A stretch of DNA of 33,487 nucleotides from Leptolyngbyaceae cyanobacterium SM1_4_3 (GTDB taxonomy: Bacteria; Cyanobacteriota; Cyanobacteriia; Elainellales; Elainellaceae), in NCBI GenBank assembly GCA_012031415.1, contig JAAUTN010000034.1:1-33487 (forward strand). Direction: 5' to 3'. Position 1 is the first letter of the stretch. Each line of letters opens with the position of its first letter. The translations under genes were made by a program, and so were the position numbers. Positions 455 to 15,900 of this stretch are shown piece after piece. The notes beneath the pieces were generated by a model. It searched no databases. It worked only from the letters and a program-made list of their open reading frames with translations, and had not been told where the DNA came from.

Positions 455-2064
455 ATGATGAGTATTGATTTTCCTTGGTTAACAGTCCTGATTCTGTTCC
501 CCCTTGTGGCATCTCTGCCGATTCCCTTTCTGCCCGATCAGGAGGGCAAAGTGGTTCGCTGGTATGCACTAGGAGCGGCTCTGGCAGAATTTGCGCTGAT
601 CATTTACACCTTCTGGCAGCATTACGACCTTCGCAACCCAGAGTATCAACTGGTTGAAACCTATAGCTGGCTTCCTCAAATTGGGCTGAACTGGTCTGTT
701 GCAGTAGATGGGCTTTCAATGCCTCTGGTTATTCTGACGGGTTTGATTACAACGCTGGCGATTCTGGCAGGATGGCAGATCAAGCATAAGCCGCGCCTGT
801 TCTTCTTCCTGATGCTGGCAATGTACAGCGCTCAGATTGGCGTTTTCGTCGCTCAGGATCTCCTATTTTTCTTCATCATGTGGGAACTGGAACTGGTTCC
901 GGTTTACCTGCTAATTTCGATTTGGGGTGGCGAGAGGCGCTCCTATGCAGCGACGAAGTTCATTCTTTACACGGCGATCGGGTCGCTGTTTATTCTCCTA
1001 GCCGCCTTTGCGATGGCTTTCTACGGAGACAACTTCACCCTGAATATCTCTGAGTTGGGGCTGAAGGACTACTCTCTCACCTTTGAGTTGCTGATTTACT
1101 CTGCCTTCCTGGTCGCTTTTGGTGTGAAGCTGCCAATCTTCCCGTTCCACACTTGGCTACCCGATGCTCACAGTGAAGCTCCTGCACCCGCTTCAATGAT
1201 TTTGGCAGGTGTGCTGCTGAAGATGGCAGGTTACGGGCTAATCCGCTTCAATATTGAGATGTTGCCTAACGCTCATGTCTACTTTGCTCCAGTGCTAGCA
1301 GTTTTGGGTGTAGTCAACATTATTTACGCTTCCTTGACAGCCTTTGCTCAGACCAGCTTGAAGCGGCGACTTGCCTACTCTTCGATCGCCCACATGGGGT
1401 TTGTCCTGATTGGCATTGCCTCTTCACAACGCTGGGCATCAGTGGCGCAGTGCTGCAAATGGTTTCGCACGGCTTAATCGCAGCGGCTCTCTTCTTCCTG
1501 TCGGGTGTAACCTACGAGCGGACTCACACTCTGGCAATGGATCGGATGGGCGGCATGGCGAAGAAGATGCCTCTGGTGTTTGCCCTGTTCACGGTTGGCT
1601 CTCTGGCTTCGCTAGCGCTACCGGGAATGAGCGGTTTTGTGGGTGAGTTAAGTGTTTTCCTCGGTTTCACAACCAGTGACGCTTACAGTGCGACTTTTAA
1701 AGCAGCAATCGTTTTACTAGCGGCGGTTGGTGTGATTCTCTCGCCGATTTATCTGCTGTCGATGCTACGGGAAGTTTTCTACGGTTCTGAGAATGTTGAG
1801 CTAACGGCTAAGTTTGACTTTAGCGATGCCAGGCCGCGTGAAGCGTTCATTGCACTCTGTTTGCTGGTGCCGATTGTGGCGATCGGAGTTTATCCAAAGC
1901 TGGCGACTCAGACCTATGACGTAAAGACGGTCGCGGTCGCAACGCAGGCACGAAACGTTTTGCCGTTGATTGCTGAACAGCCAATTCGGGTGTTCACGCC
2001 TCCCTTCTTTGCCCCACCGATTTTGGGCGCTGAGACAAAGGAGCTGGCTAGTTTAGGCGAGTAG
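455..2064 (+). CDS. ndhD: NAD(P)H-quinone oxidoreductase subunit 4 (NdhD1-type), frameshifted
   Basis: This is a proton-pumping membrane subunit (NuoM/Mrp-antiporter family) of thylakoid NDH-1, used in respiration and cyclic electron flow. The N-terminal part (455 to about 1425) contains the family landmarks: Glu144 in MWELELVP, Lys225 in [16 protein letters not shown] and Lys256 in [10 protein letters not shown]. The frame then breaks. After GIAS the sequence reads TCTTCACAACG, whereas one more T (TCT TTC ACA ACG) restores [21 protein letters not shown] and continues to the stop at 2062-2064. The rebuilt protein is about 536 residues, normal for NdhD. Start choice: two adjacent ATGs at 455 and 458, with a weak TAGG upstream. 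Both halves are fully conserved, so I favour a sequencing deletion or very recent mutation over an old pseudogene. Identity is very secure; the NdhD1 rather than NdhD2 paralogue call is less so. Confidence 0.93.
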
Positions 2065-2081
2065 TTCTAGTCCATCATCGA

Positions 2082-2120
2082 AAGAGAGGAACTTTTCTCA
2101 TTGAGAAGGGTTCCTCTTTT
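2082..2120 (+). terminator. Rho-independent terminator after ndhD
   Basis: A long hairpin starts 18 bases after the ndhD stop. The left arm AAAGAGAGGAAC pairs with the right arm GTTCCTCTTTT. An inner stem TTCTC/GAGAA around an ATT loop continues the helix through G-U pairs. The right arm ends in a T run (2117-2120). It sits between ndhD and the next plus-strand gene, so it should separate their transcripts. Confidence 0.8.
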
Positions 2121-2188
2121 GTGGCGCAAGTCTTGAGACATCCAGGATGCTCACGAGATAGACTTGGAATCAAAGACATCCAAATATA

Positions 2189-2818
2189 ATGATGCGACTT
2201 ATGGGGCGATCGCCACACCTTCTAACCTATTTAGTCCTGGCTGTTGCTCTCAATTTTGGGTTGCCGTTGGGGGCGATCGCCGTTGAGCAGGAGACTATCC
2301 TCTCTCTAATTCGGGAAACTGAGCCGCCAGACTTACGGTTGCTGCAACCGGAAGCCGTTCCATCAGATGGTTCCGTTATTACAGCAGATACCGTTTCTCA
2401 AACTGATCTGACTGTTCCTAGCTTATGGTGGGCAGACGAACAGTTTGGCGGCAAACTGCTCAACAACTGGTTTGCTTTCACGGGCAGCAATGGCGAAACG
2501 CGGCGGGTAGACCTGATTGTAAATCAGCAAATCTGGAGCCTTTACAATTACCTGGAGCGCTATACCTTCATTAACCAGTTAGGCACTGCTGCAAGAGACT
2601 TTGGCTACAGCACCAGAGTTTACAATCAGCAGCAAGAGCCTTTGGCAGCTTATGTTTGCGAATTTCCAGAGGCTGAGTTTGAGGCTCAACGGTTGATCAG
2701 CCCAGACGATTTACCAGAGGAGTTGCCTCAGAGCAGTTGCGCGATTCTGCTGGACTCATTTGGTCAGGGTGGCTTGACAGGTCAAACAAACCCGTTCGAG
2801 CGTTTCACTAACCCATGA
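2189..2818 (+). CDS. Exported hypothetical protein, 209 aa
   Basis: I do not recognise a named family. Residues about 8-32 form a hydrophobic signal peptide (LLTYLVLAVALNFGLPLGAIA), so the product is probably periplasmic or outer-membrane associated. The mature part is acidic, with a tryptophan-rich stretch (LTVPSLWWADEQFGGKLLNNW, about 74-94) and a single late Cys pair (AYVCEF and SSCAIL), which could form a disulfide. It resembles conserved cyanobacterial proteins of unknown function. It starts 124 bases after ndhD, beyond the terminator, and converges with the COP23-like gene with only 13 bases between stops. No strong ribosome site is visible; ATG at 2189 or 2192 are both possible. Confidence 0.7.
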   Translation: MMRLMGRSPHLLTYLVLAVALNFGLPLGAIAVEQETILSLIRETEPPDLRLLQPEAVPSDGSVITADTVSQTDLTVPSLWWADEQFGGKLLNNWFAFTGSNGETRRVDLIVNQQIWSLYNYLERYTFINQLGTAARDFGYSTRVYNQQQEPLAAYVCEFPEAEFEAQRLISPDDLPEELPQSSCAILLDSFGQGGLTGQTNPFERFTNP

Positions 2819-2831
2819 AGGGTTGCTGGGG

Positions 2832-3770
2832 TCAGCGCACGGTGTAGGTATAGCTGCCGCGACCCGTTTCGTCATAAGAGTTCGCGACAATTCGGTAAAC
2901 TCCTGTGGCGGGTAGCGTCACAACGATTTGAGAGTTGAAACTGCCTGACCCGATGTCGTCATTCTCAGCGATGCGATCGCCATTTGGCCCAAACAAGATT
3001 AAGTACGTGTCAAATGCAGCACTTTCCAGGGTAATCGTCACCGTCTGACCCGCTGTGCCCGAAAAGAGGTGCTCATTGTACAGGCTACCGTCGTTTAGCA
3101 CTGGGCCGCCCGCAACCAGAGTACCCTGTCCCTGCAAAATGTAGTCGCCCGTTCCAGAGGGTGAGTTGTAAGGAACGGTGCTGATGGGCGGCGTTGCCTG
3201 CTGCTGATTGAGCGCAATGAATGCCTGACGAGCCTGACTGTTTCCTCGTCCGGTTTGACCAGGAAACTGGCGGTTACACTGTTCTCTCGTAATGCCGCTG
3301 GAGTCACCCTGGACACCCTGACGAAAAAGATTTTCTTCAAACGCAGGAATAAACAGACAGCCTTGAATTTCGTTTTGAAAGGTCAGCAGAATGTTATCTG
3401 GATCGCAGATGCCCCGTTGCTGATCCTGAGCGTTTCTGGAAAGGCACATGACTGGCTCGTTATTGATGTAGCCAAAAGTCGCGTTGGAGAAGGCAGACGC
3501 GCCATCTCTGACAAAAACCCGTTGAAATCGGGCAGAAATCACCTGGCAGCGCACCTCAGCGGTGTAGGGTGGCGGTGCCCAGGCAGAGGTAAAGGTAATA
3601 AAATCAATAATTTGCCCATTCCCTGAAGCAACCATGACGGGCGGTTCGCGGCTCTCGTCACAGTAAAATCCGGCTCCGGTCTGCGCCTGAATCGGCTGAT
3701 GTACTCCGGGCAGCAGGGCGGGTACGGTCGAGCCAATTAGTAAAGCAATTAGGAGTTTGAATGGTTTCAC
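2832..3770 (-). CDS. COP23 domain protein with C-terminal PPC domain
   Basis: The protein has a signal peptide (about 1-29, ending PIQAQ), a COP23-like domain (about 34-165) and a C-terminal bacterial pre-peptidase (PPC) beta-sandwich (about 205-312). COP23 signs are the FYC start, the TAEVRCQVISARFQRVF segment, GYINNEPVMCLS and a second pair of cysteines, matching the circadian oscillating polypeptide family described in cyanobacteria. PPC signs are DYILQGQGTL, the EHLFSGTAGQTVTITLES core, FDTYLILFGPNG, IAENDDIG and GVYRIVANSYD. PPC domains usually help secretion or folding and are often removed. The start codon is GTG (3768-3770), supported by GGAG nine bases upstream. It lies downstream of the kinase gene on the same strand, separated by a 7-bp repeat tract. 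Function of the fusion is unknown. Confidence 0.82.
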   Translation of the reverse strand: MKPFKLLIALLIGSTVPALLPGVHQPIQAQTGAGFYCDESREPPVMVASGNGQIIDFITFTSAWAPPPYTAEVRCQVISARFQRVFVRDGASAFSNATFGYINNEPVMCLSRNAQDQQRGICDPDNILLTFQNEIQGCLFIPAFEENLFRQGVQGDSSGITREQCNRQFPGQTGRGNSQARQAFIALNQQQATPPISTVPYNSPSGTGDYILQGQGTLVAGGPVLNDGSLYNEHLFSGTAGQTVTITLESAAFDTYLILFGPNGDRIAENDDIGSGSFNSQIVVTLPATGVYRIVANSYDETGRGSYTYTVR

Positions 3771-3800
3771 AGATATTGGCTCCGGGTTTAGAGGTGAAGA

Positions 3801-3842
3801 ATGAGGGATGAGGGATGAGGGAGGAGGGAGGAGGGATGAAGA
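3801..3842. repeat. Heptamer tandem repeat (STRR-like)
   Basis: Six consecutive 7-base units: ATGAGGG three times, AGGAGGG twice, then ATGAAGA. It fills the gap between the kinase stop and the COP23 gene start. Heptameric short tandem repeats are a known feature of filamentous cyanobacterial genomes. Confidence 0.85.
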
Positions 3843-3864
3843 GGGTAGATGTTTAGCGGCGGGT

Positions 3865-5976
3865 TTAGAGGCAGACTCCGTTGGGGCAGGCGGGATCGGT
3901 GAAGGTGGGAGCTTGAGGCTGGGGTTGGGCGGCGGGGCGCTGGCGCTGGGGTTGGGATTGACGGCGGGGTTGGGATTGCCGACTAGGTTGGGACTGACGC
4001 TGCTGGGGAGATTCCTGCTCGGCGGCTCTTTGCTCAGCGGCTCTTTGCTCAGCGGCTGTAATTTCAGTGTTGGCTTTTTCTACGATGGGGGCTGCTTGCT
4101 GTTTCCAGTAGCGGTTAGTGATTTTTTCGGTTTCAGCGATCGCCGCCTGCCATTCCCCCCGATCGATCGCTTCCTGAGCCGATTTCACCAGCCCCTCATC
4201 GGTTCCCCATGCCTGATTCCAGGAGGCGATTTGTGCCTGTGCCTGCTCATAGACTGAGCTATTTTCAGGAATCGCGTTTGCCATTGCGATCGCGTTTTCT
4301 AACTTTCCACCCTGATATTGATCTGCCGCCAGTTGCAGAATTTGCTCAGACCATTCACCCACTAGACGCTGTGACTCCTCATGGGCAGAGTGATTTTCAG
4401 CAATTTCGCTGACCGCAAGAATTGCATCCTTAAGCTGATTGTTGGCGGCCAATGCCTGAGCCTGAGCCAATTGACAATCGCCTAGTAACTGCTGGGCTTC
4501 TGCGTCTCCGGCTAGCGCCATTGCACTACGAACGCACTCTTCATGGTTTCCTGCCATTTTGAGGGAGGCAATCTGTCCGAGGGCAAACTGCCGCTGAGAT
4601 TGGCTGTAGTAGTTCATGCCGACAAATGCAGTGGCGATCGCCGCCGCCACCCCTACTCCCATTCCCAGGAATTTCCAGCGGCTGCGAGGAGACTGCACCA
4701 CCGTTCCCTCAGAGACAACAGAAGCCACCGTCGGCGGCACTTGCGCTGGAGGAGAGGAAGGCGGCTCCGTTAGCGGCACGGTCGGTGGCGAGGAGGGAGA
4801 TACTTCACCCTGGCTCGTCTCGGTAGATATTGTTTCAACCTGAGTTACGGGCGGTGAAGAAGGCGGCGCAGTCACAGGTACCGTTGGTGCAGAGGAACTC
4901 GTTGCCGCAGAGAAGGCTACAGACGAGGGTTGAGCAGAATCAGGTTCAACAGGCGTAACCTCAGTTGCAGGCACACTGCCAATAGCAGCGACGGGAACTG
5001 CGGCTGAGTCTGATTCAGCCATCGTTGGCAGTTGAGGACTGACTTCTGTCAGGGAGAGAGGATTGCCCGACAGAGTAGAGATGGGAGCCGTAAGTGGTGC
5101 TGCTTCTGGCGGCTGCGTCACAGGCGGAAAGGCGACCTGGTGAGACGAAGTGCCTGTCATCAAGGGTTCTAGCGATCGCATGACATCTTGAGTCGTCTGG
5201 TAGCGCTGGCGAAAGTCGTAACACACCATGCCATCCAAAATTTCACCAAACCCAGAGCTGACGTTAACTCCATCTTTCCAAACCAGTTCACCCGTCGCCG
5301 GATCGTCTCGCAACTCGGTTGGATACAGCCCTGTCAAAGCCTGAATGCCCATCATGCCGACCGCGTAGATGTCGCTGCACAGGCGAGGTTTACCGCTGAG
5401 CAGTTCGTTGGGCGCGTAGCCCATTGTGCCGACTGCGACCGTCAGCATTGTTTTGCCCTGGGAGGTGACAACCTGAGTACTGATTTGCTTGACCGCACCA
5501 AAGTCAATCAGCACAAGCTGATTATCCCGCTGCCGCCGCCGAATGTTGGAGGGTTTGAGGTCACGATGAATCACCTGATGCTGATGCACAAAGCTGAGAA
5601 CTTCGAGAATTTCCCACACCAGTCGAATCGCGTCTGCCTCTGACCACTGCTTGCCCAGCAGCAGTTCGCGGCTCAGATCGTGTCCTTCAATAAATTCTTG
5701 AACCAGGTAGAATTCCTGATTTTCCTCAAAGTGGGCTAAAAGTCGGGGAATTTGCCCATGACTGCCCAGTTTGTGTAAAGTTCTGGCTTCAGATTCAAAC
5801 AGTCGTCGAGCAACCTGTAGCGTCAGCGGGTCGGTGAACTGGGGCTTAAGCTGCTTGACGACGCAAAGGTTATCTTCGGGGATGTACGCATCCTCTGCTA
5901 GGTAAGTTTGACCAAAGCTACCGCCTCCCAGGTGTTTAAAGATTCGGTAGCGACTTCCAATAACTTGACCCAGCAT
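3865..5976 (-). CDS. Membrane-anchored Ser/Thr protein kinase
   Basis: This is a Hanks-type kinase of 703 residues. The catalytic domain is at the N-terminus (about 8-270): glycine loop LGGGSFGQTYLAED, Lys41 in VVKQL, HRDLKPSN at 137-144, DFG at 158-160, and a GTMGYAPNE activation segment. It is followed by a Pro/Ser/Thr-rich linker (about 275-430), one membrane segment (WKFLGMGVGVAAAIATAFVG, about 435-455) and a C-terminal outer part of helical repeats. The C-terminus carries repeats of AAEQR, a Gln/Pro/Arg-rich stretch and the tail ACPNGVCL with two cysteines. Catalytic residues are intact, so activity is expected. The outer domain may sense an envelope signal. It lies 103 bases downstream of the TPS-CHAT gene on the same strand and may be co-transcribed with it or use its own promoter in that gap. 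Its substrate is unknown. Confidence 0.92.
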   Translation of the reverse strand: MLGQVIGSRYRIFKHLGGGSFGQTYLAEDAYIPEDNLCVVKQLKPQFTDPLTLQVARRLFESEARTLHKLGSHGQIPRLLAHFEENQEFYLVQEFIEGHDLSRELLLGKQWSEADAIRLVWEILEVLSFVHQHQVIHRDLKPSNIRRRQRDNQLVLIDFGAVKQISTQVVTSQGKTMLTVAVGTMGYAPNELLSGKPRLCSDIYAVGMMGIQALTGLYPTELRDDPATGELVWKDGVNVSSGFGEILDGMVCYDFRQRYQTTQDVMRSLEPLMTGTSSHQVAFPPVTQPPEAAPLTAPISTLSGNPLSLTEVSPQLPTMAESDSAAVPVAAIGSVPATEVTPVEPDSAQPSSVAFSAATSSSAPTVPVTAPPSSPPVTQVETISTETSQGEVSPSSPPTVPLTEPPSSPPAQVPPTVASVVSEGTVVQSPRSRWKFLGMGVGVAAAIATAFVGMNYYSQSQRQFALGQIASLKMAGNHEECVRSAMALAGDAEAQQLLGDCQLAQAQALAANNQLKDAILAVSEIAENHSAHEESQRLVGEWSEQILQLAADQYQGGKLENAIAMANAIPENSSVYEQAQAQIASWNQAWGTDEGLVKSAQEAIDRGEWQAAIAETEKITNRYWKQQAAPIVEKANTEITAAEQRAAEQRAAEQESPQQRQSQPSRQSQPRRQSQPQRQRPAAQPQPQAPTFTDPACPNGVCL

Positions 5977-6079
5977 AAGAATTCAGTGTTTTTGTCTACC
6001 AAATTAGCATGAAGCAAATCTTTCCCCAGGTATAAATACAAGCTGCTACATGAATTTTCCATAAGGATTTCACAGCCTC

Positions 6080-9000
6080 TTACCAGGGATTGCCGATCAT
6101 CGTGAATGCTGCCCAGTAATAGGGATGTGATAGTTCACGGCTGCTAATATTTAAGCTGGCAGAGGGTAGGGTTAGGCCGTCAATGCCTTCCAGTCCAAGC
6201 AACTGGCCGTTTTCCAAATAAACTTCACCCCGCGCCATCGAGATCTGGGCTTGCCGCAGTGCCTCTGCCTTAATGGGAGCGGTACTCAGCGATCGGTAGA
6301 AGCCTGTCATCAGAGCGGCGGTTCCGGTGTCACTGACATACCAGAGGCTTGCAACCGCTGTTTTAACTCCCGTCTGGACGGCTAGCCCTGCAAAGCCCAG
6401 TTCTGCCTGTGCGTCTCCCAGGGCAGTCCGGCAGGCGCTTAGCACCAGCATTTCTACGGGTGGGTCATTCCAACCAAGCTGCCGCACCTGATCCATTCGC
6501 AGTTTGTCATTCCAAAGCTGAATGTAGGAGTCGTTGACTGGTCCCGCTACAAAGTCAGCGTGAGTTGCCATGTGAATGATGCCAAAGGGCTGCTCGGTAC
6601 GAATTTGACGCAGATTGTCCAGGGTAGCGCGATCGTTGAGAAAGATTCTGCCGCGCCAGAGGTTTAGCACGACGGTGGAAAGCTCGACTGGCACGGCGGG
6701 CAGTGGTGTTTGTCCTTGAGTGCTTTCAGAAACGCCCATAGCCAGCATTTGAGCGTCTTTGATATCGACGTAGCGGGTATCAGTCAGGCTCAAACTGGGC
6801 ATTAAGCCAACGCTGTATTGCTCAACCAGGAATTGTTCGCCGCTGTGCAGGGCGGAAAAGGGGAGCGATCGCAATCCCACATCTGGCAAAAACACCAGGT
6901 TGTTGATTGCCTCAGCTTGCAAATCAGACTGAATCGGGGCAACGAGCCACTGATAAAGCTGCTGGGCCGATGTCAGGTAGCTTGTGCTACGCGTTCCTCT
7001 AGGATTTGTTACCTGCCCCCGAAATTCCTGGGCGGTGGCCAAAACCAGGGCACGAGTGGCTTCTGGAACTCGTCTGCGCGTTAACCCTGTTTTGGTCACG
7101 ACGACCAGTTCCAGTTGATCGCTGTCCTGAGGAGCATAGTTTCCTGGCAGCAGATTAAGCGATTCGGGCACAAAGCTGACGTAGACGAAAGCAGGTTTGG
7201 CTCCTGTAGCGTCTTCGATTTCCTGTAAGATTACCTGTGCTTCATCCAGCGATCGCAGGCGCGTGTTTTCCAACCCCAAATAGCCTTCAAATTCCTGGGT
7301 GAAGTTCTCTTCGAGGCGGGCGATCGCCGTGTCAATGGTGATGGGCGATCGGTCTACCAGTTCTGGCGTGGGACTGACCGGATCAACAGGAAGAAGTTCA
7401 CCCTCGGTAAAAGGTGGAATGGGCGGGGACGGGGTAGGCGTGGGAGTCGGAGTTGGCGTGGGTGTAGGAGTTGGCGTGGGTGTAGGAGTGGGTGTAGGAG
7501 TGGGTGTGGGTGTAGGAGTTGGCGTGGGCGTGGGCGTGGGCGTGGTTTCAGAGGTGAGGACTTGAATATTGCCCCGTGCAAATTCGACACCGGGAATGGG
7601 AGAATCAGCAGCAGTGAGGCTTGCTTCGCCTGTGGTAATGGCTCCAGCAGTTCCATTGGTGGGGTTGGCAGTGCCAATGGTGAAGGGAGTTTCTGTGCGA
7701 CCGCCCTCATGTCGAATGCTAATGGAGCCACCGCCGCTTAAGCCCGATGTGGAAATGCTGGCGTTGATTTCATTGCGATCGCCAAAACTGCCCAACACCC
7801 GAAACAGACGACCCGCGGTAATGTCTACCGTTCCGCCTGTGCCTTCAAAGCCTTGAGTATTGATCGTGTTAACTCGAATTGTGCGTTCAGCGTTCAGCGT
7901 TACGCTGCCGCCATTGCCGCCGCTTGAGGTATCAACATTGCCTAGCAGCAGACTTGCACCAGAAATGCTCAAATCGTTGCCGTTTGTGTCTAGCGTGTCG
8001 TTCAAACTCATTGAAAAGTTACCCACGCCATCGCCATCAGCATCAGCTCGAAACTGAATCGTGGCGGGGCTAAACGTTTCAAAATCAAATAAAGTCAGAA
8101 TGCCGTCCGAAAGCGGCTCAATTATGATGTTGTTGGTTGCTTCTAGCTGCACATTGCCAAAGGAGATAGCATTTTCTAGCGCTGCTTCAGAAATTGTGAA
8201 TGATTCACCAGGGGCACCCTCATCCACCAAAATGGTGCCGTTATCCAGCAATTGAGCATCATCGTCCCCGCCTGTGCCCGCCACAACGGTGATGTTTACC
8301 GGATCGAGCAGTAGAGTGCCCGCTTGACCGTTGCTAGCGCTGGTGTTGACCCTGCCTCTAAAAATCAGGTTTTCGCGACCCGACACTTCCACAAAGCCGC
8401 CATTGCCCGAAATTTCGCCGCCTTGAGCGCTGATGCTGCCGTGAAAGGCGGCTGTCTCGTCTGCCCAGATGATGACGCGGCCACCATTGCCGCGATCGCC
8501 TCCATCCGCATTAATTACAGAATCGCGGTTGACCCATGTGCGCGAAGCCGTTGGAATGCTTCCCTCTCCCTGATAGTCGCCGCCAACTAGCACCGTGCCA
8601 CCACCCTGACCAGAGGCATCAATGTTGGCTTCTACTAATCCGACGACATCGCCCAAGATGTGAACCGTGCCCCCAGCCAAGCTGGCGGCAGTTGAGGAAA
8701 CGTCTAGATTACCGGATGCGATCGCCACTCCTAGCCGATCGGGAATTTGAATGCCAGAGCCAACTAGCTCGACTTCCCCATCAGGGTTGAGCCGTAGCCC
8801 AGTTGCGCTGCTAGCGTTTCCCCCGGTGAGCAGTTCAGGCAGAGAGGCAGTGGGCAGTGTCCAAGAGGCAGGTTCACCGGATTGATCCTGGGCAGCAACA
8901 GGTTCAATCTCAAGGCTGAGCAAATGCCCTACCTGCCTTAGCCGTACCCGATTTGCCCCGGAAACTGCGGTTAGGGTAATTTGCCCCGCAGGTGCAGAGA

Positions 9001-9742
9001 GTTCTCCAGTGTTAGTGACGGTGCCACCCAGCAGGGTGAGGGAATGTCCTTCAGAAACGCTGAGGTTGCCTGCGTTGGCGATCGCCCCCGGTTCCGCCAT
9101 CGTGAAGACAAACTGAGTCGGCGTACCCACCAAACGGGCATAGTCATTTGCCCCTGAGCCATTAAACCAGCCCTGCTCAAACCCAATTCCGCTAGCCGTT
9201 GTAGCGGTAAATGCCGCAGGCACATCCAGCCGCGCACTGGCACCAAACAGAATTCCGGCAGGGTTCATCAAATACAGGTTTGAGTCGCCGCCCGTGACCT
9301 GAAGCAAGCCGTTGATTAAAGAAGGATCGCCGCCTACTACCCGTGCCAAAATATTTTGAATTGCTGGGTCAGAGCGAAACAAGGCAATTTCACTGCGGCT
9401 CAGCCCAAACCGCTCAAAGCTTTGGAAGAGATTGCCCCCATCCTCTGAAAGCTGCCCACCGCGAATGATGTAGCGATCGCCATCGACCCTGACACGAGTT
9501 CCCGTTCCATCATTGGCAGGCACAATAGACTGAGCGACGGCTGGAGTAGCAGCGGTGCCGACGATGAGCAACGTCCCGACGGCAAACGTTCCGACCGTGA
9601 AAGCAACAGAGGAGCTGGGTGAGGCGATCGCACCTCCCCAGCTAGCTCCCTGATGAGACGAAGAAACACCAGGAATAGAAGGAATCATACGGGTGTTTGA
9701 ATGCTGAGTAACCGTTACTACAAAATACGCCAGCCCTGACAA
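6080..9742 (-). CDS. TPS/FHA-type exported protein fused to a C-terminal CHAT protease
   Basis: Domain order, numbered from the TTG at 9742: signal peptide (about 48-70, ending PAVAQS); an FHA-type two-partner-secretion domain (about 75-200, with DGDRYIIRGG, FQSFERFGLS, GGDPSLINGLLQVTGG, NLYLMNPAGILFGASARLD); beta-helix repeats to about 730; a Thr-Pro repeat linker (about 733-770); and a C-terminal CHAT caspase-like domain (about 870-1218). The CHAT catalytic pair is present: His1061 in HMATHADF and Cys1104 in LSACRTALGD, 43 residues apart. TPS domains normally carry proteins through an outer-membrane TpsB pore. CHAT domains are C14/C25-clan peptidases, in bacteria mostly intracellular. Start is uncertain: the long frame begins at TTG, while ATG at 9686-9688 (residue 19) gives 1,202 residues and a more ordinary signal peptide; neither has a good ribosome site. 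No TpsB gene is in the window. The domain calls are strong; the substrate is unknown. Confidence 0.9.
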   Translation of the reverse strand: MSGLAYFVVTVTQHSNTRMIPSIPGVSSSHQGASWGGAIASPSSSVAFTVGTFAVGTLLIVGTAATPAVAQSIVPANDGTGTRVRVDGDRYIIRGGQLSEDGGNLFQSFERFGLSRSEIALFRSDPAIQNILARVVGGDPSLINGLLQVTGGDSNLYLMNPAGILFGASARLDVPAAFTATTASGIGFEQGWFNGSGANDYARLVGTPTQFVFTMAEPGAIANAGNLSVSEGHSLTLLGGTVTNTGELSAPAGQITLTAVSGANRVRLRQVGHLLSLEIEPVAAQDQSGEPASWTLPTASLPELLTGGNASSATGLRLNPDGEVELVGSGIQIPDRLGVAIASGNLDVSSTAASLAGGTVHILGDVVGLVEANIDASGQGGGTVLVGGDYQGEGSIPTASRTWVNRDSVINADGGDRGNGGRVIIWADETAAFHGSISAQGGEISGNGGFVEVSGRENLIFRGRVNTSASNGQAGTLLLDPVNITVVAGTGGDDDAQLLDNGTILVDEGAPGESFTISEAALENAISFGNVQLEATNNIIIEPLSDGILTLFDFETFSPATIQFRADADGDGVGNFSMSLNDTLDTNGNDLSISGASLLLGNVDTSSGGNGGSVTLNAERTIRVNTINTQGFEGTGGTVDITAGRLFRVLGSFGDRNEINASISTSGLSGGGSISIRHEGGRTETPFTIGTANPTNGTAGAITTGEASLTAADSPIPGVEFARGNIQVLTSETTPTPTPTPTPTPTPTPTPTPTPTPTPTPTPTPTPTPTPSPPIPPFTEGELLPVDPVSPTPELVDRSPITIDTAIARLEENFTQEFEGYLGLENTRLRSLDEAQVILQEIEDATGAKPAFVYVSFVPESLNLLPGNYAPQDSDQLELVVVTKTGLTRRRVPEATRALVLATAQEFRGQVTNPRGTRSTSYLTSAQQLYQWLVAPIQSDLQAEAINNLVFLPDVGLRSLPFSALHSGEQFLVEQYSVGLMPSLSLTDTRYVDIKDAQMLAMGVSESTQGQTPLPAVPVELSTVVLNLWRGRIFLNDRATLDNLRQIRTEQPFGIIHMATHADFVAGPVNDSYIQLWNDKLRMDQVRQLGWNDPPVEMLVLSACRTALGDAQAELGFAGLAVQTGVKTAVASLWYVSDTGTAALMTGFYRSLSTAPIKAEALRQAQISMARGEVYLENGQLLGLEGIDGLTLPSASLNISSRELSHPYYWAAFTMIGNPW
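7433..7545 (-). repeat. Thr-Pro coding minisatellite in the CHAT protein
   Basis: An array of 6-base units (ggcgtg, ggtgta, ggagtt and similar) that together form imperfect 12- and 18-base higher units. On the coding strand it gives about 35-40 residues of alternating Thr and Pro, an extended stiff linker between the beta-helix and the protease. Copy number is likely variable between strains. Confidence 0.9.
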
Positions 9743-9791
9743 GAATCAGAACTGGCGATATCAAAACTTAATTCGGTTATGACACCAAGCA

Positions 9792-9806
9792 CCTTTCGGG
9801 GAAAGG
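9792..9806 (-). terminator. Short hairpin after the first WGxxGxxG gene
   Basis: CCTTTC and GAAAGG pair around a three-base loop, just past the stop of the gene ending at 9814. No T run follows on the minus strand, so it may act as an attenuator or mRNA stabiliser rather than a full terminator, and would let transcription continue into the TPS-CHAT gene. Confidence 0.35.
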
Positions 9807-9813
9807 AATCCTG

Positions 9814-10104
9814 CTACTCGCGATAGCTCGTGCCGCTTGCTACATCCGGTCCCCGATCTGTCTCTCGGTAGGTCGTGGTGGTCTTAGGCTTACGAAGCAG
9901 GTTTGCCAAACCAACTAAACCAATCAAACCCAGCCAACCCCAGTTTCCAGGATCATCCTCACTCTCTTGAAACGGAGTCGTGTCTACAGTCGGGTTACTT
10001 GTATCTTCAGTTTGAGCCAGAGCAGACGGCGCAGCGGGCAATAAAATTAGGCTGGCTGCTAGAAGTCCAGACTTGACAAGTTTAGAAATGTCAGCGCTTT
10101 TCAT
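9814..10104 (-). CDS. WGxxGxxG family exported protein, 96 aa
   Basis: A small exported protein. It has a signal peptide (about 1-31, ending ALAQ), an acidic spacer and the short hydrophobic motif WGWLGLIGLVGLANLLRK (about 55-72), which fits the WGxxGxxG C-terminal domain family. In the typical form the WG motif and basic residues sit near the C-terminus, like protein-sorting tags. Here a 24-residue hydrophilic tail containing two YRE triplets follows. The ATG at 10102-10104 has AAGGAA upstream. Its paralogue lies 147 bases upstream on the same strand, and the TPS-CHAT gene follows. Function is unknown; a role as a sorted or membrane-tethered surface protein is inferred only from the motif. 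Confidence 0.75.
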   Translation of the reverse strand: MKSADISKLVKSGLLAASLILLPAAPSALAQTEDTSNPTVDTTPFQESEDDPGNWGWLGLIGLVGLANLLRKPKTTTTYRETDRGPDVASGTSYRE

Positions 10105-10251
10105 GTTTATTTCCTTCGTTTAAAGGTCTGATCTCTATCAAAAATTTTTCGGAAAACTTAACGATTGGGTCTCAGGAAGCAACCCAAGACCCCATTGTTC
10201 TGCTGATCGGCCTCTACTTCCGCCGCTTAGACAGTCCTTAAATAGCGGTGC

Positions 10252-10533
10252 TTAATAGCGTGTAGAAGGACGGCTCGCTTCATCCGGCTCACGGTAGCGG
10301 GTAGCAGGCTCTTCGTTCTTACGAGCCAAACCAGCCAAGCCAATCAAGCCCAACAAACCTAGCCAACCCCAGTCGAAGTCGCGATCGCCTTCTACTTCAG
10401 TTTCGGTGATTGTTGTGGTGTCTTCAACCGCAGGAGCGTCCTGAGCTAATCCAGGCGCACCCAGAGACAGCATAGTTAGGCTTAACGTCAGAACACTGGC
10501 TCCAGCCAATTTAGTGAGATTTGAAAGCTTCAT
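10252..10533 (-). CDS. WGxxGxxG family exported protein, 93 aa (paralogue)
   Basis: This is a paralogue of the neighbouring gene, with the same plan: signal peptide (about 1-31, ending GLAQ), acidic spacer rich in Thr and Glu, motif WGWLGLLGLIGLAGLARK (about 55-72) and a tail with TRYRE and a terminal STRY. The WG motif falls at the same residue number in both proteins, which suggests a tandem duplication. The ATG at 10531-10533 has GAGG about ten bases upstream. It is the first gene of the minus-strand block, so its promoter should lie in the gene-poor region to the right. Function is unknown. Confidence 0.75.
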   Translation of the reverse strand: MKLSNLTKLAGASVLTLSLTMLSLGAPGLAQDAPAVEDTTTITETEVEGDRDFDWGWLGLLGLIGLAGLARKNEEPATRYREPDEASRPSTRY

Positions 10534-11284
10534 AGTCGAATGTCCTCGCTAATTCTGCATTTTAAGGAAACTTGGCAATGCAACTACCGATAAGAAACCA
10601 GTTCGTTGCTAATTTGGTAAAGGGTTTATTTGACCCGTTCAGCAGCCATGCTCCTACAGTATTCGTTTGCCTTTAACACTCGAATCAACCTAGAGCGATA
10701 AACCTAAATCAGGGATAGTCATCCCGCAGAGATAGAGAAACAGTAGAGACAATCTATTTCAACCTTTTCAACAGAATCATTCTTAGAAAAAGCACTCAGT
10801 TCATTTTGAACTCTACACCTATAGAAGTCTAAAACCTTTGCTATTGGGAGATTTCAGTCTTTGAGAAAATTCAAATCGCATCTGGAAAACTGAAACCACG
10901 TATCAAAAACATAGGGCTACAGGTCATGGCTTTAAGTACAGGCAAAAAATGGATTTCTCAGAAAACATACATTTCTAAACAATCAAAATTCTGTTTAGCC
11001 AAATCTACAAATCTTATACGTCTTGTCTGTACGCTACTGAGTCAACTTTTACAACGCAAAGGGCTGTGGCTAATTGGGTACACTCCAGGTTTGGAAGTAG
11101 TGCGGTGAAGCCTGTGTCCCTGACAAGTCTAGATGCAAAGATAGAAAGCATCTCAACAATTCTTCATTTAGAAATTCAGAGAATAGAAAAAGTTTGACCT
11201 GACAGATTGTGAATTGAGCAGAGTCGAATTCCACGACTTTAAAGGTCTGCTAGGCAACCAGAAAATGTAGTTCTGAAGCAGCTT
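10534..11284. other. 750-base AT-rich intergenic region
   Basis: I see no credible gene. The plus-strand frame at 10926-11108 has no family signature and an implausible composition. A small hairpin (GGGAT/ATCCC, 10712-10725) is present. The right-hand part should hold the 3' end of the TMEM175 transcript, and the left part the promoter of the WGxxGxxG genes. The size leaves room for a small RNA, but I cannot support one. Confidence 0.5.
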
Positions 11285-11860
11285 TTATAGAGTTAGAGCC
11301 TTCTCAATGCGGCGATCGGGGATAAGCCACAGAACTGCAACCAAAACATATAGCGCACAGGCAATCCATGAGTTTACAAAAGAAAGCAAAATGGACAGAG
11401 CATACACAGCCATTGACGTTTTGCCTTTGAAATCTCGACCTACTGCGACGGCTAGGGCAGAACCTTTTTCGTGACAGGCAATCAGACTGCGGGTAAGGAT
11501 GGAGTAGGCGATCGCCGCACACAGCAACACGGTGCCATAGAGCGCAGCGGGCAAAGCAGCAAAGTTATTCTCGCCTGTCCAGGCTGTTACAAAGGGAACT
11601 AGCGACAGCCAGAATAACAAATGCAAATTAGCCCACAGGACACTACCATTCACGCGCCGAGCCGCCTGCAACAGGTGATGATGATTGTTCCAGTAAACGC
11701 CGATGTAAATAAAGCTGAGTACATAGCTCAGGAAGACAGGCATTAGCGGACGCAGCGCAGCCCAATTAGCTTCATCGGGCACTTCTAATTCCAGCACCAT
11801 AATGGTGATGATAATGGCGATTACCCCGTCGCTAAATGCTTCTAGCCGCCCTTTACCCAT
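11285..11860 (-). CDS. TMEM175 family potassium channel protein (DUF1211)
   Basis: An integral membrane protein of 191 residues. The family hallmark is at the N-terminus: RLEAFSDGVIAIIITIMVLEL, with the conserved RxxxFSD motif. Six hydrophobic segments follow, as expected for one bacterial TMEM175 subunit; bacterial members form tetrameric potassium channels. A longer frame runs up to 11968, but I choose ATG at 11858-11860. It has AGGAAG about ten bases upstream, it places the FSD motif at the correct distance from the start, and the extra upstream residues would be encoded by a palindromic repeat element. It is a lone minus-strand gene, divergent from yebC. Ion selectivity is taken from the family, not from this sequence. 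Confidence 0.88.
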   Translation of the reverse strand: MGKGRLEAFSDGVIAIIITIMVLELEVPDEANWAALRPLMPVFLSYVLSFIYIGVYWNNHHHLLQAARRVNGSVLWANLHLLFWLSLVPFVTAWTGENNFAALPAALYGTVLLCAAIAYSILTRSLIACHEKGSALAVAVGRDFKGKTSMAVYALSILLSFVNSWIACALYVLVAVLWLIPDRRIEKALTL

Positions 11861-11936
11861 TTCTGTGCGCTTCCTGTTTGCCAAGTTAGAAGTGAGTTCA
11901 GATATTTTGTACTCTACTGCTGCTTCAGACCAGACG

Positions 11937-12049
11937 CAATCTGACAGGGGTGCATCCCAATTTTGCATTTAGTTTTGTAAGTGGCGCGGGCTAAGCCCGC
12001 GCACTTACAAAACTGGGATGTACCCATCTGACAATCTGACAGGGGTGCA
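11937..12049. repeat. MITE-like palindromic element between TMEM175 and yebC genes
   Basis: A 113-base structured element. The 18-base sequence CAATCTGACAGGGGTGCA is present as a direct repeat at both ends (11937-11954 and 12032-12049). Inside lies a large inverted repeat: GGGTGCATCCCA with TGGGATGTACCC, then AGTTTTGTAAGTG with CACTTACAAAACT, then CGCGGGCT with AGCCCGCG around a single A. It carries no gene. It looks like a miniature mobile or repeat-derived element, and lies upstream of both divergent genes. Confidence 0.75.
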
Positions 12050-12100
12050 GCAGGTTTATTATTCTAGGTTTGGACGTTATCTCAAAGCATTGATTGGCGC

Positions 12101-12868
12101 ATGGCAGGACACAGCAAGTGGGCAAATATCAAGCGGCAAAAAGCCAGAGTTGATGCGGTAAAGGGCAAAACCTTTGCCAAAATTTCACGGGAGATTATTG
12201 TGGCCGCCCGCAGCGGCGTGCCTGACCCCAACGGCAACTTTCAGCTTCGCACGGCGATTGAGAAGGCAAAGGCGGCAGGAATTCCCAATGACAATATTGA
12301 GCGGGCGATCGCCAAAGGATCGGGCAAGCTGGGTGCGGATGCCGATGCGCTAGAGGCGATGCGCTATGAGGGCTATGGCCCTGGCGGGGTGGCTGTGCTG
12401 ATCGAAGCCTTTACCGACAACCGTAACCGCACGGCGGCTGACCTGAGAGCCGCCTTTAACAAAGTTGGAGGAAACTTAGGAGAAACGGGCTGCGTCGGCT
12501 GGATGTTTGAGCAGAAGGGCGTTGTCACCCTGACTGGAGAAATTGACGAGGATGAGTTGCTGGAAGCTTCCCTGGAAGGCGGCGCAGAATCCTATGAACT
12601 GGTTGAGATAGACGAATTAGCGGGGGCTGAGATTTTCACAGAACCGACTCATTTAGAAACCCTGAGTCAAGCTTTACAGGAAAAGGGCTACCGAATTCAC
12701 CAGACTGAACTGCGCTGGATTCCACAAAATTCTGTAGAAGTGACTGACCCTGACCAGGCGCGATCGCTGCTCAAGCTGATGGATGCGCTAGAAGACCTGG
12801 ACGATGTGCAGTCGGTCAACGCTAACTTTGACATGGCCGATGAGCTAATGTCAGTCAGCATGGTCTAG
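12101..12868 (+). CDS. yebC: YebC/PmpR family protein
   Basis: A cytosolic three-domain protein of 255 residues, the normal length. The diagnostic N-terminus [19 protein letters not shown] is followed by [23 protein letters not shown] and the [21 protein letters not shown] motif. Members were described as DNA-binding regulators (PmpR), and more recent work on YebC and mitochondrial TACO1 supports a role in translating proline-rich stretches on the ribosome. The gene is monocistronic, and its last 18 bases overlap antisense with the 3' end of the first DUF928 gene. Confidence 0.96.
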
Positions 12869-13747
12869 AGGTTCGTCAGCGATCGCACCTAGCCCAACTG
12901 ATTCCAGCAAGTTACGCCAGCGGGCATTGGCAGCTGCATCTTCAGGGTCAGCGCGGCGCTGCTCGGCGATCGCACTCAGGGCATCGTGCCAGAATCCAGC
13001 GGCGGCGTAAATAGCGGGGCGATCGCTCTCTGCTGCTGCTTCAAGTTGGGCAACCAGATCGGGCGCAGGCTCAACTCGCTGAATCCAGCCCTCGGTATAA
13101 ACGTCGGCTGAGCGATCGCCTGAGTCACAAATCAGGGAGAAAGACCAGCGATATAGCTCACCTACTTCCAGCGGTGGCATTCCAGCATGGGCAGGTAGCG
13201 TCAGGCTAACGATTCCCGCTTCGCCTGTGATTTGTAATTGAGTGCGGTAAATCTCGTTGTCTGCCTCATCAAACAGAATTAGCTCTATGGCTGCTGCCTG
13301 ATTCGAGGGAACCTGCCAGAACAGGGTAGGGTAGCCCGTAACGGTTCCGCCATAGTTGTCCAGCGGCATCAGGGCAACCAGATTTTGCGGGTTGTCCGGT
13401 TGTGAGTCGTCCGGTTGCGGGTTGTTAACGCAGCTACCACTGCGGGTGCCGCCTGCCTCACGCCGACCGGGCAATCCCGACGCGGGAGGGGTATAGCGCC
13501 CAGGTGCAGGTTGAGCGGGAGATCTTTGCTGTTCAAGCTGGGGTAGCTCGATTGCAGGCGCATCGGCTCCAGGTGGTCGCGCAAAGTTGCCTAACCGCGT
13601 ACCGCCATCACCCAAACGTTCGGGCAATCCCAAATCCGGTGGAACGTACTGCTGCGCTAGGGCTGACGGTAAGCTGCTATTTAACCATAGCCCTGATGTT
13701 GCTAGACAAGCCGCAATGCGAATAAGTCGAGGGCGATCGCAGCACAT
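12851..13747 (-). CDS. DUF928 exported protein 1, with doubled N-terminal motif
   Basis: A 298-residue exported protein. The signal peptide ends at ALAQ (about 32). The DUF928 body (about 122-290) includes [54 protein letters not shown] and [11 protein letters not shown]. The family's short motif YxPPxxGLPxRxxGGTRxG occurs twice, at about 34-52 (degenerate: [11 protein letters not shown]) and 85-103 (good: [11 protein letters not shown]), so the N-terminus looks internally duplicated. It is the last gene of a three-gene cassette, 30 bases after DUF928 protein 2. DUF928 genes in cyanobacteria are often found near CHAT and TPS proteins; their function is unknown. Confidence 0.86.
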
Positions 13748-13777: not shown

Positions 13778-14536
13778 TTACGGGCTGGTGCCCAAATGAC
13801 TGCTGAGAGGCCAGATGCTGACTTGCTCACAGCAAGAGACAAACGGCTGATCTGCGACGTTGGCTAGCTCTACCGAATCTAGTAAAGTTCTCCACTCTCT
13901 TACAAAAGTGGCGTTTTGCGGGTTGGCGCGACGCAAATCGGCGAGAGAGGCGAGGGCATCATGCCAAATTCCAGCGGCAGCGTAGATTGCGGGGCGATCG
14001 CGGGCGGCGGCTGTTTCCAACCGAGCAGTCAGGGCTGCATCCGGCTCAACTCTCTGAATCCAGCCTTCGGTATAGGGATCACCCGACCGATCAACCTCAT
14101 CACACACCAGTGAAAAATACCAGTGATAGTCTTTCCCAACCTCTAGAGGTGGCATTCCGGCAGTTTCAGGCAGGCTCAGGCTAATGACCCCCGTATCTCC
14201 CGTTACCTGAAAACGGGTGCGATATAGCTCGTTGTCATTTTCATCCAACAGCACAAACTCCGCTGCTTGCGGTCGCACATCAGGAATGTACCAGAAAAAA
14301 GTAGGATACTCGGCAATGGTTTTACCAAAGTTAGTGTCAGGCATCAGGGCCGTTAGGCGCTGACTGCTGCTCAGGCAATCGCCACGAGTGCCTCCCCCTT
14401 CACGGCGACCCGGCAAGCCGCGCTGGGGAGGGATGTATTGTTGCGCCAAAGTTACGGTGGGCAGGGCAACCAGCCATATTCCCACCGATAGCATCAGCGA
14501 AACAGAAAACCATTTAAGCAGAGAGGGTCGATGCAT
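13778..14536 (-). CDS. DUF928 exported protein 2
   Basis: A 252-residue paralogue. The signal peptide ends at TLAQ (about 32), followed at once by YIPPQRGLPGRREGGGTRG, then LMPDTNFGKTIAEYPTFFWYIP, FVLLDENDNELYRT, LEVGKDYHWYFSLVCD and [11 protein letters not shown]. It ends with an alpha-helical part (IYAAAGIWHDALASLADLRR) and a Cys-Cys pair (SCCEQ) that may form a vicinal or inter-chain disulfide. GAGAAG precedes the ATG at 14534-14536. The helical part resembles the short TPR-like end of DUF928 proteins. The cassette order suggests co-transcription with its two paralogues. Confidence 0.87.
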   Translation of the reverse strand: MHRPSLLKWFSVSLMLSVGIWLVALPTVTLAQQYIPPQRGLPGRREGGGTRGDCLSSSQRLTALMPDTNFGKTIAEYPTFFWYIPDVRPQAAEFVLLDENDNELYRTRFQVTGDTGVISLSLPETAGMPPLEVGKDYHWYFSLVCDEVDRSGDPYTEGWIQRVEPDAALTARLETAAARDRPAIYAAAGIWHDALASLADLRRANPQNATFVREWRTLLDSVELANVADQPFVSCCEQVSIWPLSSHLGTSP

Positions 14537-14651: not shown

Positions 14652-15434
14652 TTACTCCGTCTGAGCAGTGGTACAGCACTGAGCAAAGGCAGATTCAGCA
14701 ATGTGACCAAGCCCAACAGAGTTGAGTAGAGTAGACCACTGAGTTGTAAAAGTTGGAGTTGTAGGGGTAGTGCGAAGCGCCACCAGACTAGCGAGTGCGT
14801 CGTACCAAATCCCTGATTGGGCATAGAGGGTAGGAAGTTGGGCTGGAGCGGCGTTTGTCAGGGCAGTTTGCAGTTCAGCGCTGGGCTGAATGCGCTGAAT
14901 CCAGCCGTCCATAACGCGATCGCCAGAACGATCGTCCAGGTTGCAGGTCAAGCCAAAGCTCCACTGGTAGGATTTGCCAAGTTCCAGGGCCGATGCGCTA
15001 TTGGTAGGCAGCGTAACGCTGATCACGTTAGCGGTATGACGAGGTTGAAAGGTGGTGCTGTAGACTTCGTTGCCCTGCTCATCCAGCAGCACAAAGTCAG
15101 CCGCTACTGCTTTTTCAGCATAAAGCTGAGGGATATAAAAGAAGAAAGTGGGATGCTCTAAGGTGGTGTAGCCAAAGTTTTCAGCAGGGGTCAAAGCTGT
15201 CGGCAACTCTTCTATGGAAGACTGGGACAGGGTGCTGTTTGCCGCTGCTAGCTCGTTCCAACAGCCACGAGTGCCGCCGCCTTCTCGCCGTCCTGGTAAA
15301 CCGAGATTGGGGGGGGTATATTCCTGGGCGATCGCTCTCAGCGGGAAGCCCCCTATCGCTATTCCTAAAGAAAAGGTGCAGCAAACTACAACGAGAATTG
15401 GACGAGCCTTAGAATTCAGATTTAATTGGTACAT
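14652..15434 (-). CDS. DUF928 exported protein 3
   Basis: This is the first gene of the DUF928 cassette. The frame can be extended to a TTG at 15485, but I choose ATG at 15432-15434, which gives MYQLNLNSK and a normal signal peptide ending at AIAQ. The mature part has YTPPNLGLPGRREGGGTRG, a spacer, YTTLEHPTFFFYIPQ, DFVLLDEQGNEVYSTT, LELGKSYQWSFGLTCN, WIQRIQPS and the final helical segment IWYDALASLVALR. It ends with AQCCTTAQTE, matching the Cys-Cys pair of paralogue 2. The three copies differ in many positions, so the duplications are not recent. The promoter should lie in the 466-base gap to the right. Confidence 0.87.
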   Translation of the reverse strand: MYQLNLNSKARPILVVVCCTFSLGIAIGGFPLRAIAQEYTPPNLGLPGRREGGGTRGCWNELAAANSTLSQSSIEELPTALTPAENFGYTTLEHPTFFFYIPQLYAEKAVAADFVLLDEQGNEVYSTTFQPRHTANVISVTLPTNSASALELGKSYQWSFGLTCNLDDRSGDRVMDGWIQRIQPSAELQTALTNAAPAQLPTLYAQSGIWYDALASLVALRTTPTTPTFTTQWSTLLNSVGLGHIAESAFAQCCTTAQTE

Positions 15435-15900
15435 ACTAATTTCATCCCATGAACACACAAAGATTGTTTGATGCAGATGGCTCAATCGAAGGATAAAAGC
15501 GATGGTCTGAAGCGATCGCAGACTATTTCACATTCCCATCAGATTGAGCCGGGGCCGCAATCTGAGTGGATTTAGCTACGAGATCTCGACTATCTTTTGA
15601 CTCAACAGGTAAAGGTTTTGATAATTGGCTCAACAACGGACTCGCTAACCGCGATCTGCACGGGTCTCCGCCTGAGCATCAGAACTAGTACGGAGGTGCT
15701 TGTTCTATAGATTCACGGAATTTACTTTTGTTTCCGTACTAATTTCATCCAATTCGTTCACCTAATTGGGTGTATTCACTAATAGTTAGCTGTCTTGCAT
15801 CTCCGGTTCCCATTTAAGCGCGTAGGATTTAAGTTTCCGGTTTAACCCGATGAAGATTAGATGAACCCGTTGCGGTTTCTCCTCCCTCTGCTCAAACCCC
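15435..15900. other. Intergenic region upstream of the DUF928 cassette
   Basis: No gene is seen. The 14-mer TACTAATTTCATCC occurs twice (15434-15447, touching the chosen DUF928-3 start codon, and 15737-15750). TAGTACGG (15686-15693) is inverted as CCGTACTA (15734-15741), and ACGGAA/TTCCGT (15715-15737) can form a hairpin. These could be promoter or operator elements for the cassette. The right edge is the 3' end of the ClC gene on the same strand. Confidence 0.4.

What the first reader, a model, noticed from the sequence alone, without database searches (positions are those of the whole stretch)
6080..9742. Exported fusion of a two-partner-secretion domain and a CHAT caspase-like protease
Seen: signal peptide, FHA-type TPS domain, beta-helix, Thr-Pro linker, then a CHAT domain with both catalytic residues (His1061, Cys1104). 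Known: CHAT proteases studied in bacteria (gasdermin activation, TPR-CHAT/Craspase) work inside the cell, while TPS proteins are moved to the surface. Inferred: this would be a caspase-like protease displayed outside the cell, perhaps releasing itself or cutting surface partners or neighbours' proteins. The Thr-Pro linker could be a stalk.
Basis: partly seen in the sequence, partly recalled or inferred. Interest (0 to 1): 0.75.

Follow-up and report, generated by a model that had tools for sequence, protein, structure and literature searches.

The report
Exported caspase-like protease fused to adhesin
Many filamentous cyanobacteria make a very large exported protein that carries an intact separase/caspase-type protease at its tail; its genes often sit beside membrane receptors whose inner ends are immune-type effectors, suggesting a protease acting outside the cytoplasm to feed a signal inwards.

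Summary
Window ORF 6080-9742 (-) encodes a Sec signal, a TPS (FHA-type) domain (E 3e-40), a repeat-rich middle part, a Pro-rich linker and a C-terminal CHAT domain (E 5e-70) with H1061/C1104. The start is more likely the ATG at 9688. It is not an oddity: 68 single-ORF TPS-CHAT fusions turned up in cyanobacterial contigs. His and Cys are intact in all long examples, and dN/dS is 0.05-0.07 in CHAT. An AlphaFold model (pLDDT 92.7) matches Csx29/TPR-CHAT (Z 27.7), separase (Z 25) and gingipain (Z 18.5). Free-standing CHATs of the same subfamily also carry signal peptides (14 of 15). TpsB is not near the window gene but adjoins a minority of fusions elsewhere. In relatives, exported CHATs recur beside DUF928 and CHASE2 receptors, whose cytosolic parts vary: cyclase, kinase, TIR, caspase, trypsin, CHAT. 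Sometimes DUF1822 and a sigma factor follow. I read it as an exported, active CHAT protease, probably the outer part of a transmembrane signalling or conflict module. Display on the outer surface, the substrate and self-release are inferred. The Thr-Pro stalk is a variable Pro-rich linker. I found no description in the open literature searched.

The parts
6080..9688 (-). TPS-CHAT fusion gene with the more likely ATG start (1202 aa; the ORF extends to a TTG at 9742)
   Evidence: ORF; orthologue L097 starts at the matching ATG after an upstream stop
9533..9688 (-). signal peptide (h-region SVAFTVGTFAVGTLLIVGTAATPAVA, cleavage likely before QS)
   Evidence: read from the sequence; hydrophobic run and AxA site kept in L089 and L097. 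No dedicated predictor was run
8903..9508 (-). TPS (filamentous haemagglutinin N-terminal) secretion domain, residues 79-280
   Evidence: PF05860 3.2e-40, TIGR01901 9e-21
7562..8887 (-). Gly/Asn/Thr-rich repeat region, probably beta-helix (residues 286-727)
   Evidence: sequence character and place after a TPS domain; fold not modelled
7412..7546 (-). Thr-Pro repeat linker (about residues 733-777)
   Evidence: sequence; repeat number differs between orthologues; linker type varies in homologues
6971..7342 (-). pre-CHAT region (residues 801-924), part of the separase/Csx29-type fold
   Evidence: AlphaFold model and match to Csx29 and separase over nearly the whole 440 aa
6089..6970 (-). CHAT peptidase domain; His1061 codon 6560-6562, Cys1104 codon 6431-6433
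   Evidence: PF12770 5e-70; dyad invariant in 71 sequences; model pLDDT 92.7
9814..10104 (-). WGxxGxxG family small exported protein, immediately upstream
   Evidence: NF041742 7.6e-16; neighbour family upstream of fusions in 6 loci including L184
10252..10533 (-). second WGxxGxxG family protein
   Evidence: NF041742 2.6e-17
3865..5976 (-). Ser/Thr kinase with one TM-like segment, 104 bp downstream on the same strand; possible signalling partner
   Evidence: PF00069 8e-34; kinase family recurs next to fusions in 7 loci, near-identical relatives included
2832..3770 (-). COP23 + PPC exported protein; conserved with the fusion only in close relatives
12851..13747 (-). DUF928 exported protein 1
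   Evidence: PF06051 2.8e-59
13778..14536 (-). DUF928 exported protein 2 (model: beta sandwich plus four helices)
   Evidence: PF06051 1.1e-68; AlphaFold
14652..15485 (-). DUF928 exported protein 3
   Evidence: PF06051 9.7e-57

Best explanation
It is a two-partner-secretion exoprotein whose C-terminal cargo is a catalytically competent CHAT (separase/Csx29-type) cysteine protease. Shown by sequence: a signal peptide, a TPS domain, a linker and an intact CHAT dyad in a strongly constrained gene, in a family spread over filamentous cyanobacteria. Inferred: Sec exports it, a TpsB pore (unlinked here) threads the beta-helix out, and the CHAT domain works at or near the outer membrane, in the periplasm or on the surface. 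There, after a conformational trigger, it cleaves one or a few specific proteins. Inferred from recurring neighbours: it is the outer protease of a signalling module in which DUF928 (exported, Ig/Fn3-like plus helices) and a membrane receptor (CHASE2 in many loci, perhaps the adjoining Ser/Thr kinase in the window) pass the event to interchangeable cytosolic outputs.
For: Domains and dyad. Purifying selection. Model matches Csx29 and separase across 306-348 residues; the H-C spacing of 43 equals Csx29 H615/C658, whose mutation abolishes cleavage (PMC10028731). 68 fusions, all long ones with H and C intact. Signal peptides on 14 of 15 free-standing CHATs of the subfamily and on 11 of 13 CHAT ORFs in the module loci. 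Of 40 DUF928 genes in six genomes, 21 lie within 3 kb of CHASE2 (about 0.5 expected) and 22 within 3 kb of CHAT (about 1 expected). One locus, L203, holds TpsB, TPS-CHAT, DUF928, CHAT-CHASE2, DUF1822 and a sigma factor side by side. CHASE2 partners carry cyclase, kinase, TIR, GGDEF-EAL, CHAT, caspase or trypsin domains.
Against: No CHASE2 gene and no TpsB in the window. In the contig sample only 7 of 68 fusions have TpsB, 10 DUF928 and 9 CHASE2 within 6 kb, so the module link holds for a subset. Proteolysis, substrate, localisation and topology are untested. Gene adjacency does not prove interaction.
Confidence: 0.5

Rival explanations
1. A surface processing or maturation protease: after TpsB export, CHAT releases the beta-helix or trims sheath, pilus or S-layer proteins (as gingipains do), with no link to signalling.
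For: Gingipain RgpB is an exported caspase-fold protease and matches the model (Z 18.5). Pro-rich linkers before CHAT in half of the fusions would suit release. Many fusions have no CHASE2 or DUF928 nearby.
Against: No conserved cleavage site could be sought without a known specificity. The DUF928/CHASE2 clustering is far above chance and is not explained.
Confidence: 0.25
2. A contact-dependent weapon of the CdiA/FHA kind: the stick carries a protease toxin delivered into neighbouring cells.
For: TpsA architecture with an enzymatic C-terminus; tandem copies in some genomes (L102, L090, L146).
Against: The C-terminus is conserved rather than swapped (CHAT in the last residues of 66 of 71 fusions), there is no VENN motif in the window protein, and no cognate immunity gene pairs with every copy.
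Confidence: 0.1
3. A sensor rather than an enzyme: CHAT serves as an extracytoplasmic binding or scaffold domain, as may be the case in the membrane anti-sigma factor DdvA.
For: DdvA is among the structural matches (Z 18) and is a membrane regulator.
Against: Both catalytic residues are kept in every long fusion while much of the rest varies.
Confidence: 0.1
4. Decayed or misassembled gene, with chance joining of two ORFs.
For: Some paralogues in this genome are frameshifted (C240, C573).
Against: The window gene is open over 1220 codons, 95% and 84% identical orthologues have the same layout, and dN/dS is 0.1.
Confidence: 0.01

Closest known systems
Csx29 / TPR-CHAT (Craspase, type III-E CRISPR)
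   Same: CHAT fold over the full pre-CHAT + CHAT length (Z 27.7), same H-C spacing of 43 (H615/C658). Csx29 cleaves Csx30, which holds a sigma factor; some relatives of the window gene sit with DUF1822 and a sigma factor
   Different: Csx29 is cytosolic, TPR-fused and RNA-activated; ours has a signal peptide and a TPS domain and no Cas7-11
TPS exoproteins (FHA, HMW1) and the TPS-secreted protease LepA of Pseudomonas
   Same: Signal peptide and TPS domain; LepA shows that TPS systems can export proteases (my knowledge)
   Different: LepA is a trypsin-like serine protease; a CHAT cargo was not found described; TpsB is not adjacent in the window
Gingipain RgpB (clan CD, exported by type IX secretion)
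   Same: Exported cysteine protease of caspase fold; model Z 18.5
   Different: Other family (C25), other secretion route, no TPS domain
HetF of Anabaena
   Same: Cyanobacterial CHAT protein, membrane-associated at septa (PMC8406250)
   Different: One TM segment and TPRs, partner of FtsI, no TPS domain
DdvA transmembrane anti-sigma factor
   Same: Membrane regulator with a region that matches the CHAT model (Z 18)
   Different: Anti-sigma factor, not a TPS exoprotein

Membership tests
Two-partner secretion exoprotein (TpsA) | N-terminal TPS domain | tested here: met
   PF05860 3.2e-40, cut-off passed; TIGR01901 9e-21
Two-partner secretion exoprotein (TpsA) | Sec signal peptide | tested here: inconclusive
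   Hydrophobic run and AVA/QS site, conserved in orthologues, but few n-region charges in the window and no dedicated predictor run
Two-partner secretion exoprotein (TpsA) | cognate TpsB pore | tested here: inconclusive
   None in the window; five POTRA_2 proteins elsewhere in the assembly, one next to a paralogue; near 7 of 68 homologous fusions and in L203
Two-partner secretion exoprotein (TpsA) | secretion through the outer membrane | not testable with these tools
   needs fractionation
CHAT peptidase (separase-like, clan CD) | CHAT domain above curated cut-off | tested here: met
   237 bits against 24
CHAT peptidase (separase-like, clan CD) | His/Cys dyad | tested here: met
   H1061/C1104 invariant in 71 sequences
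CHAT peptidase (separase-like, clan CD) | separase/Csx29 fold | tested here: met
   pLDDT 92.7; Z 27.7 Csx29, Z 25 separase
CHAT peptidase (separase-like, clan CD) | proteolytic activity | not testable with these tools
   needs assay
CHASE2/DUF928/exported-CHAT neighbourhood | DUF928 nearby | tested here: met
   three DUF928 genes 3-6 kb away on the same strand, with TMEM175-like and yebC genes between
CHASE2/DUF928/exported-CHAT neighbourhood | CHASE2 receptor adjacent | tested here: not met
   none in the window; present for the paralogue at contig C487
CdiA contact-dependent toxin | variable C-terminal toxin with immunity gene | tested here: not met
   CHAT is the constant C-terminus in 66 of 71 fusions
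Craspase (type III-E CRISPR) | Cas7-11 partner in the locus | tested here: not met
   no such gene among the window ORFs scanned

The most novel reading that the evidence does not exclude
Multicellular cyanobacteria have an undescribed transmembrane immune or self-recognition system. Exported CHAT proteases (TPS- or TPR-fused) with DUF928 act outside the cytoplasm and trigger CHASE2 receptors whose inner ends are swappable death or signalling effectors (TIR, caspase, CHAT, trypsin, cyclase, kinase), in some loci through a second CHAT protease and a DUF1822/sigma-factor pair.
Probability: 0.3. Interest if true: 0.88.

Novelty: new variant of a known kind. Interest (0 to 1): 0.66.

Why it matters
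CHAT-type proteases are known as cytosolic switches in CRISPR immunity, in gasdermin activation and, as separase, in mitosis. A large family exported by signal peptides and TPS domains would place this switch outside the cytoplasm. The neighbourhood with receptors bearing TIR, caspase, trypsin and CHAT outputs gives a concrete, testable scheme for how filamentous cyanobacteria might sense contact or attack, and offers a functional context for DUF928 and DUF1822.

Tried and rejected
TpsB near the window gene: none found. Anti-phage libraries: PADLOC has no model for the fusion or DUF928; the kinase hits there only reflect the kinase domain. Solved structures by sequence: no hit at E 0.1, so fold comparison was used. 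DUF928 fold: weak matches to Ig/Fn3-like sandwiches with low TM-scores, no function read from them. Literature: TPS + CHAT + cyanobacteria, DUF928, and CHASE2 + CHAT searches found no description; one paper notes CHASE2 and DUF928 side by side in Nostoc (PMC5587647), and the 2020 conflict-system survey held in the library does not mention CHASE2, CHAT or DUF928 by those names. Tree: fusions are clustered but need about 9 changes on a quick tree; the one-clade test did not finish, so single origin is left open. CDI toxin and decayed gene rejected as given under rivals.

Full report
Observation. The minus-strand frame 6080-9742 is open over 1220 codons. Pfam finds TPS at residues 79-280 (3.2e-40) and CHAT at 925-1218 (5e-70), both well over the curated cut-offs; NCBIfam adds the haemagglutinin N-terminal domain. 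The two orthologues L089 (95% identical) and L097 (84%) keep the whole layout. L097 has a stop upstream and an ATG at the position matching window 9688, so the protein probably starts there. dN/dS is 0.05-0.07 in CHAT, 0.09-0.14 in TPS and about 0.13 in the middle part. The Thr-Pro run is real, but its length differs between orthologues.

Family. A scan of species genomes with an alignment of the fusion kept 77 loci, all from records titled as cyanobacteria. In them 68 single ORFs hold both TPS and CHAT; with the window's own genome the sizes run from 973 to 3582 aa. H-x-x-T-H and S-A-C are intact in all long examples, and CHAT ends two residues from the C-terminus in 66 of 71. The own genome has at least four more copies: C487, C240 (frameshifted), C420 (cut by the contig end) and C573 (broken). 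In 36 genomes of the same order, 35 have a match to the pre-CHAT + CHAT region, many in frames of over 1200 aa. Linkers differ: (TP)n, (PA)n, (PPT)n, PEP-like or none; 36 of 72 are Pro-rich by a simple count.

Fold. The 440 C-terminal residues were modelled with 71 sequences (pLDDT 92.7, pTM 0.91). The best solved matches are the TPR-CHAT protease Csx29 (Z 27.7, rmsd 3.4, 337 residues), separase (Z 25.1, rmsd 3.3, 324 residues), gingipain RgpB (Z 18.5, rmsd 3.4, 275 residues) and the anti-sigma factor DdvA (Z 18). The His-Cys spacing of 43 equals that of Csx29 H615/C658, whose mutation abolishes cleavage (PMC10028731). Protease competence is thus well supported by sequence and fold, but not shown.

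Export. The window protein has a hydrophobic run and an AVA/QS site before the TPS domain. Free-standing CHATs of the same subfamily (about 440-500 aa) begin with evident signal peptides in 14 of 15 loci, the exception being cut by a contig end; 11 of 13 CHAT ORFs in the module loci do too. These are simple hydrophobicity calls checked by eye, not a trained predictor. The subfamily is therefore exported as a rule. TpsB is absent from the window. It lies near 7 of 68 fusions, beside a paralogue in C240 and in L203. Whether CHAT crosses the outer membrane is open: the C-terminal parts of FHA and CdiA can stay in the periplasm (my knowledge).

Surroundings. In six genomes, 21 of 40 DUF928 genes lie within 3 kb of a CHASE2 gene (about 0.5 expected) and 22 within 3 kb of a CHAT gene (about 1 expected); 24 of 118 CHAT hits lie within 6 kb of a TPS hit, fusions included (2.1 expected). 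These expectations assume random placement and use rounded genome sizes. DUF928 proteins mostly begin with signal peptides by eye, and the model shows a beta sandwich and four helices. CHASE2 proteins beside exported CHAT, TPS or DUF928 genes carry different cytosolic parts: guanylate/adenylate cyclase, histidine kinase, TIR, GGDEF-EAL, CHAT, Peptidase C14, trypsin. The cytosolic CHAT of CHASE2 proteins keeps a GHS...NSC pair. DUF1822 lies next to 11 of 36 CHASE2 ORFs, and in L203 it is followed by a sigma-70 factor. L203 thus holds TpsB, TPS-CHAT, DUF928, CHAT-CHASE2, DUF1822 and sigma in a row. Separated versions occur on plasmids: Nostoc sp. UHCC 0302 has CHASE2, DUF928, TpsA, TpsB, CHAT, TpsA; Gloeothece has CHASE2, CHAT, TpsA, TpsB.

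Window locus. Here the fusion is preceded by two WGxxGxxG proteins and followed 104 bp downstream by a Ser/Thr kinase, then COP23; three DUF928 genes lie 3-6 kb upstream, with TMEM175-like and yebC genes between. The kinase family recurs beside fusions in 7 loci and WGxxGxxG in 6, near-identical relatives included. There is no CHASE2 here, so the kinase may be the receptor partner; this is inference.

Mechanism. Most likely (0.5): an exported, specific CHAT protease that acts outside the cytoplasm, upstream of a membrane receptor. Shown: domains, dyad, conservation, fold by model, and clustering with DUF928/CHASE2 in relatives. Inferred: export route, side of the outer membrane, trigger, substrate and coupling. 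The parallel with Csx29, which cleaves a sigma inhibitor (PMC10028731), suggests what the inner CHAT and DUF1822/sigma pair might do, but membership in that system is not claimed. Rivals: surface processing protease (0.25), weapon (0.1), non-enzymatic sensor (0.1).

Novelty. Each domain is known. I found no description of the TPS-CHAT fusion or of the CHASE2/DUF928/exported-CHAT neighbourhood in the open library searched, which lacks many subscription papers. I class it as a new variant of a known kind.

Noticed in passing
window 12868-12870; L183 about 943-13391; own-genome contig C240 (L064): A 12.4-kb segment with TpsB, a 125-aa exported protein, a second TPS-CHAT (frameshifted), a TIR protein, an nSTAND1-WD40 protein and a TPR protein lies between DUF928 and yebC in the relative, but is absent from the window and L097. 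Contig C240 of the window's own assembly is 99.9% identical to the relative, so the assembly may mix two strains.
   Followed up: partly
L119, L187, L189, L196, L155, L120, L063: CHASE2 receptors near exported CHAT/DUF928 genes have interchangeable cytosolic parts: TIR, trypsin, caspase, CHAT, GGDEF-EAL, cyclase, histidine kinase.
   Followed up: partly
L083 (Caballeronia sp. M1242 plasmid): TPR-CHAT with a changed catalytic His (HIASD), TpsB and a 2008-aa TpsA are set inside a type VI secretion cluster.
   Followed up: no
window 455-2064: NADH/Mrp antiporter-type subunit split over two overlapping frames (profile parts 1-196 and 202-283); frameshift or assembly error.
   Followed up: no
L102, L090, L146, L122: Tandem TPS-CHAT genes, up to three in a row.
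   Followed up: no
L188, L190-L192, L199, L201: A family of about 215-225 aa without Pfam match (two members scanned) precedes DUF1822 and CHAT-CHASE2; it sits where L203 has a sigma-70 factor, but a direct profile comparison gave no match.
   Followed up: partly
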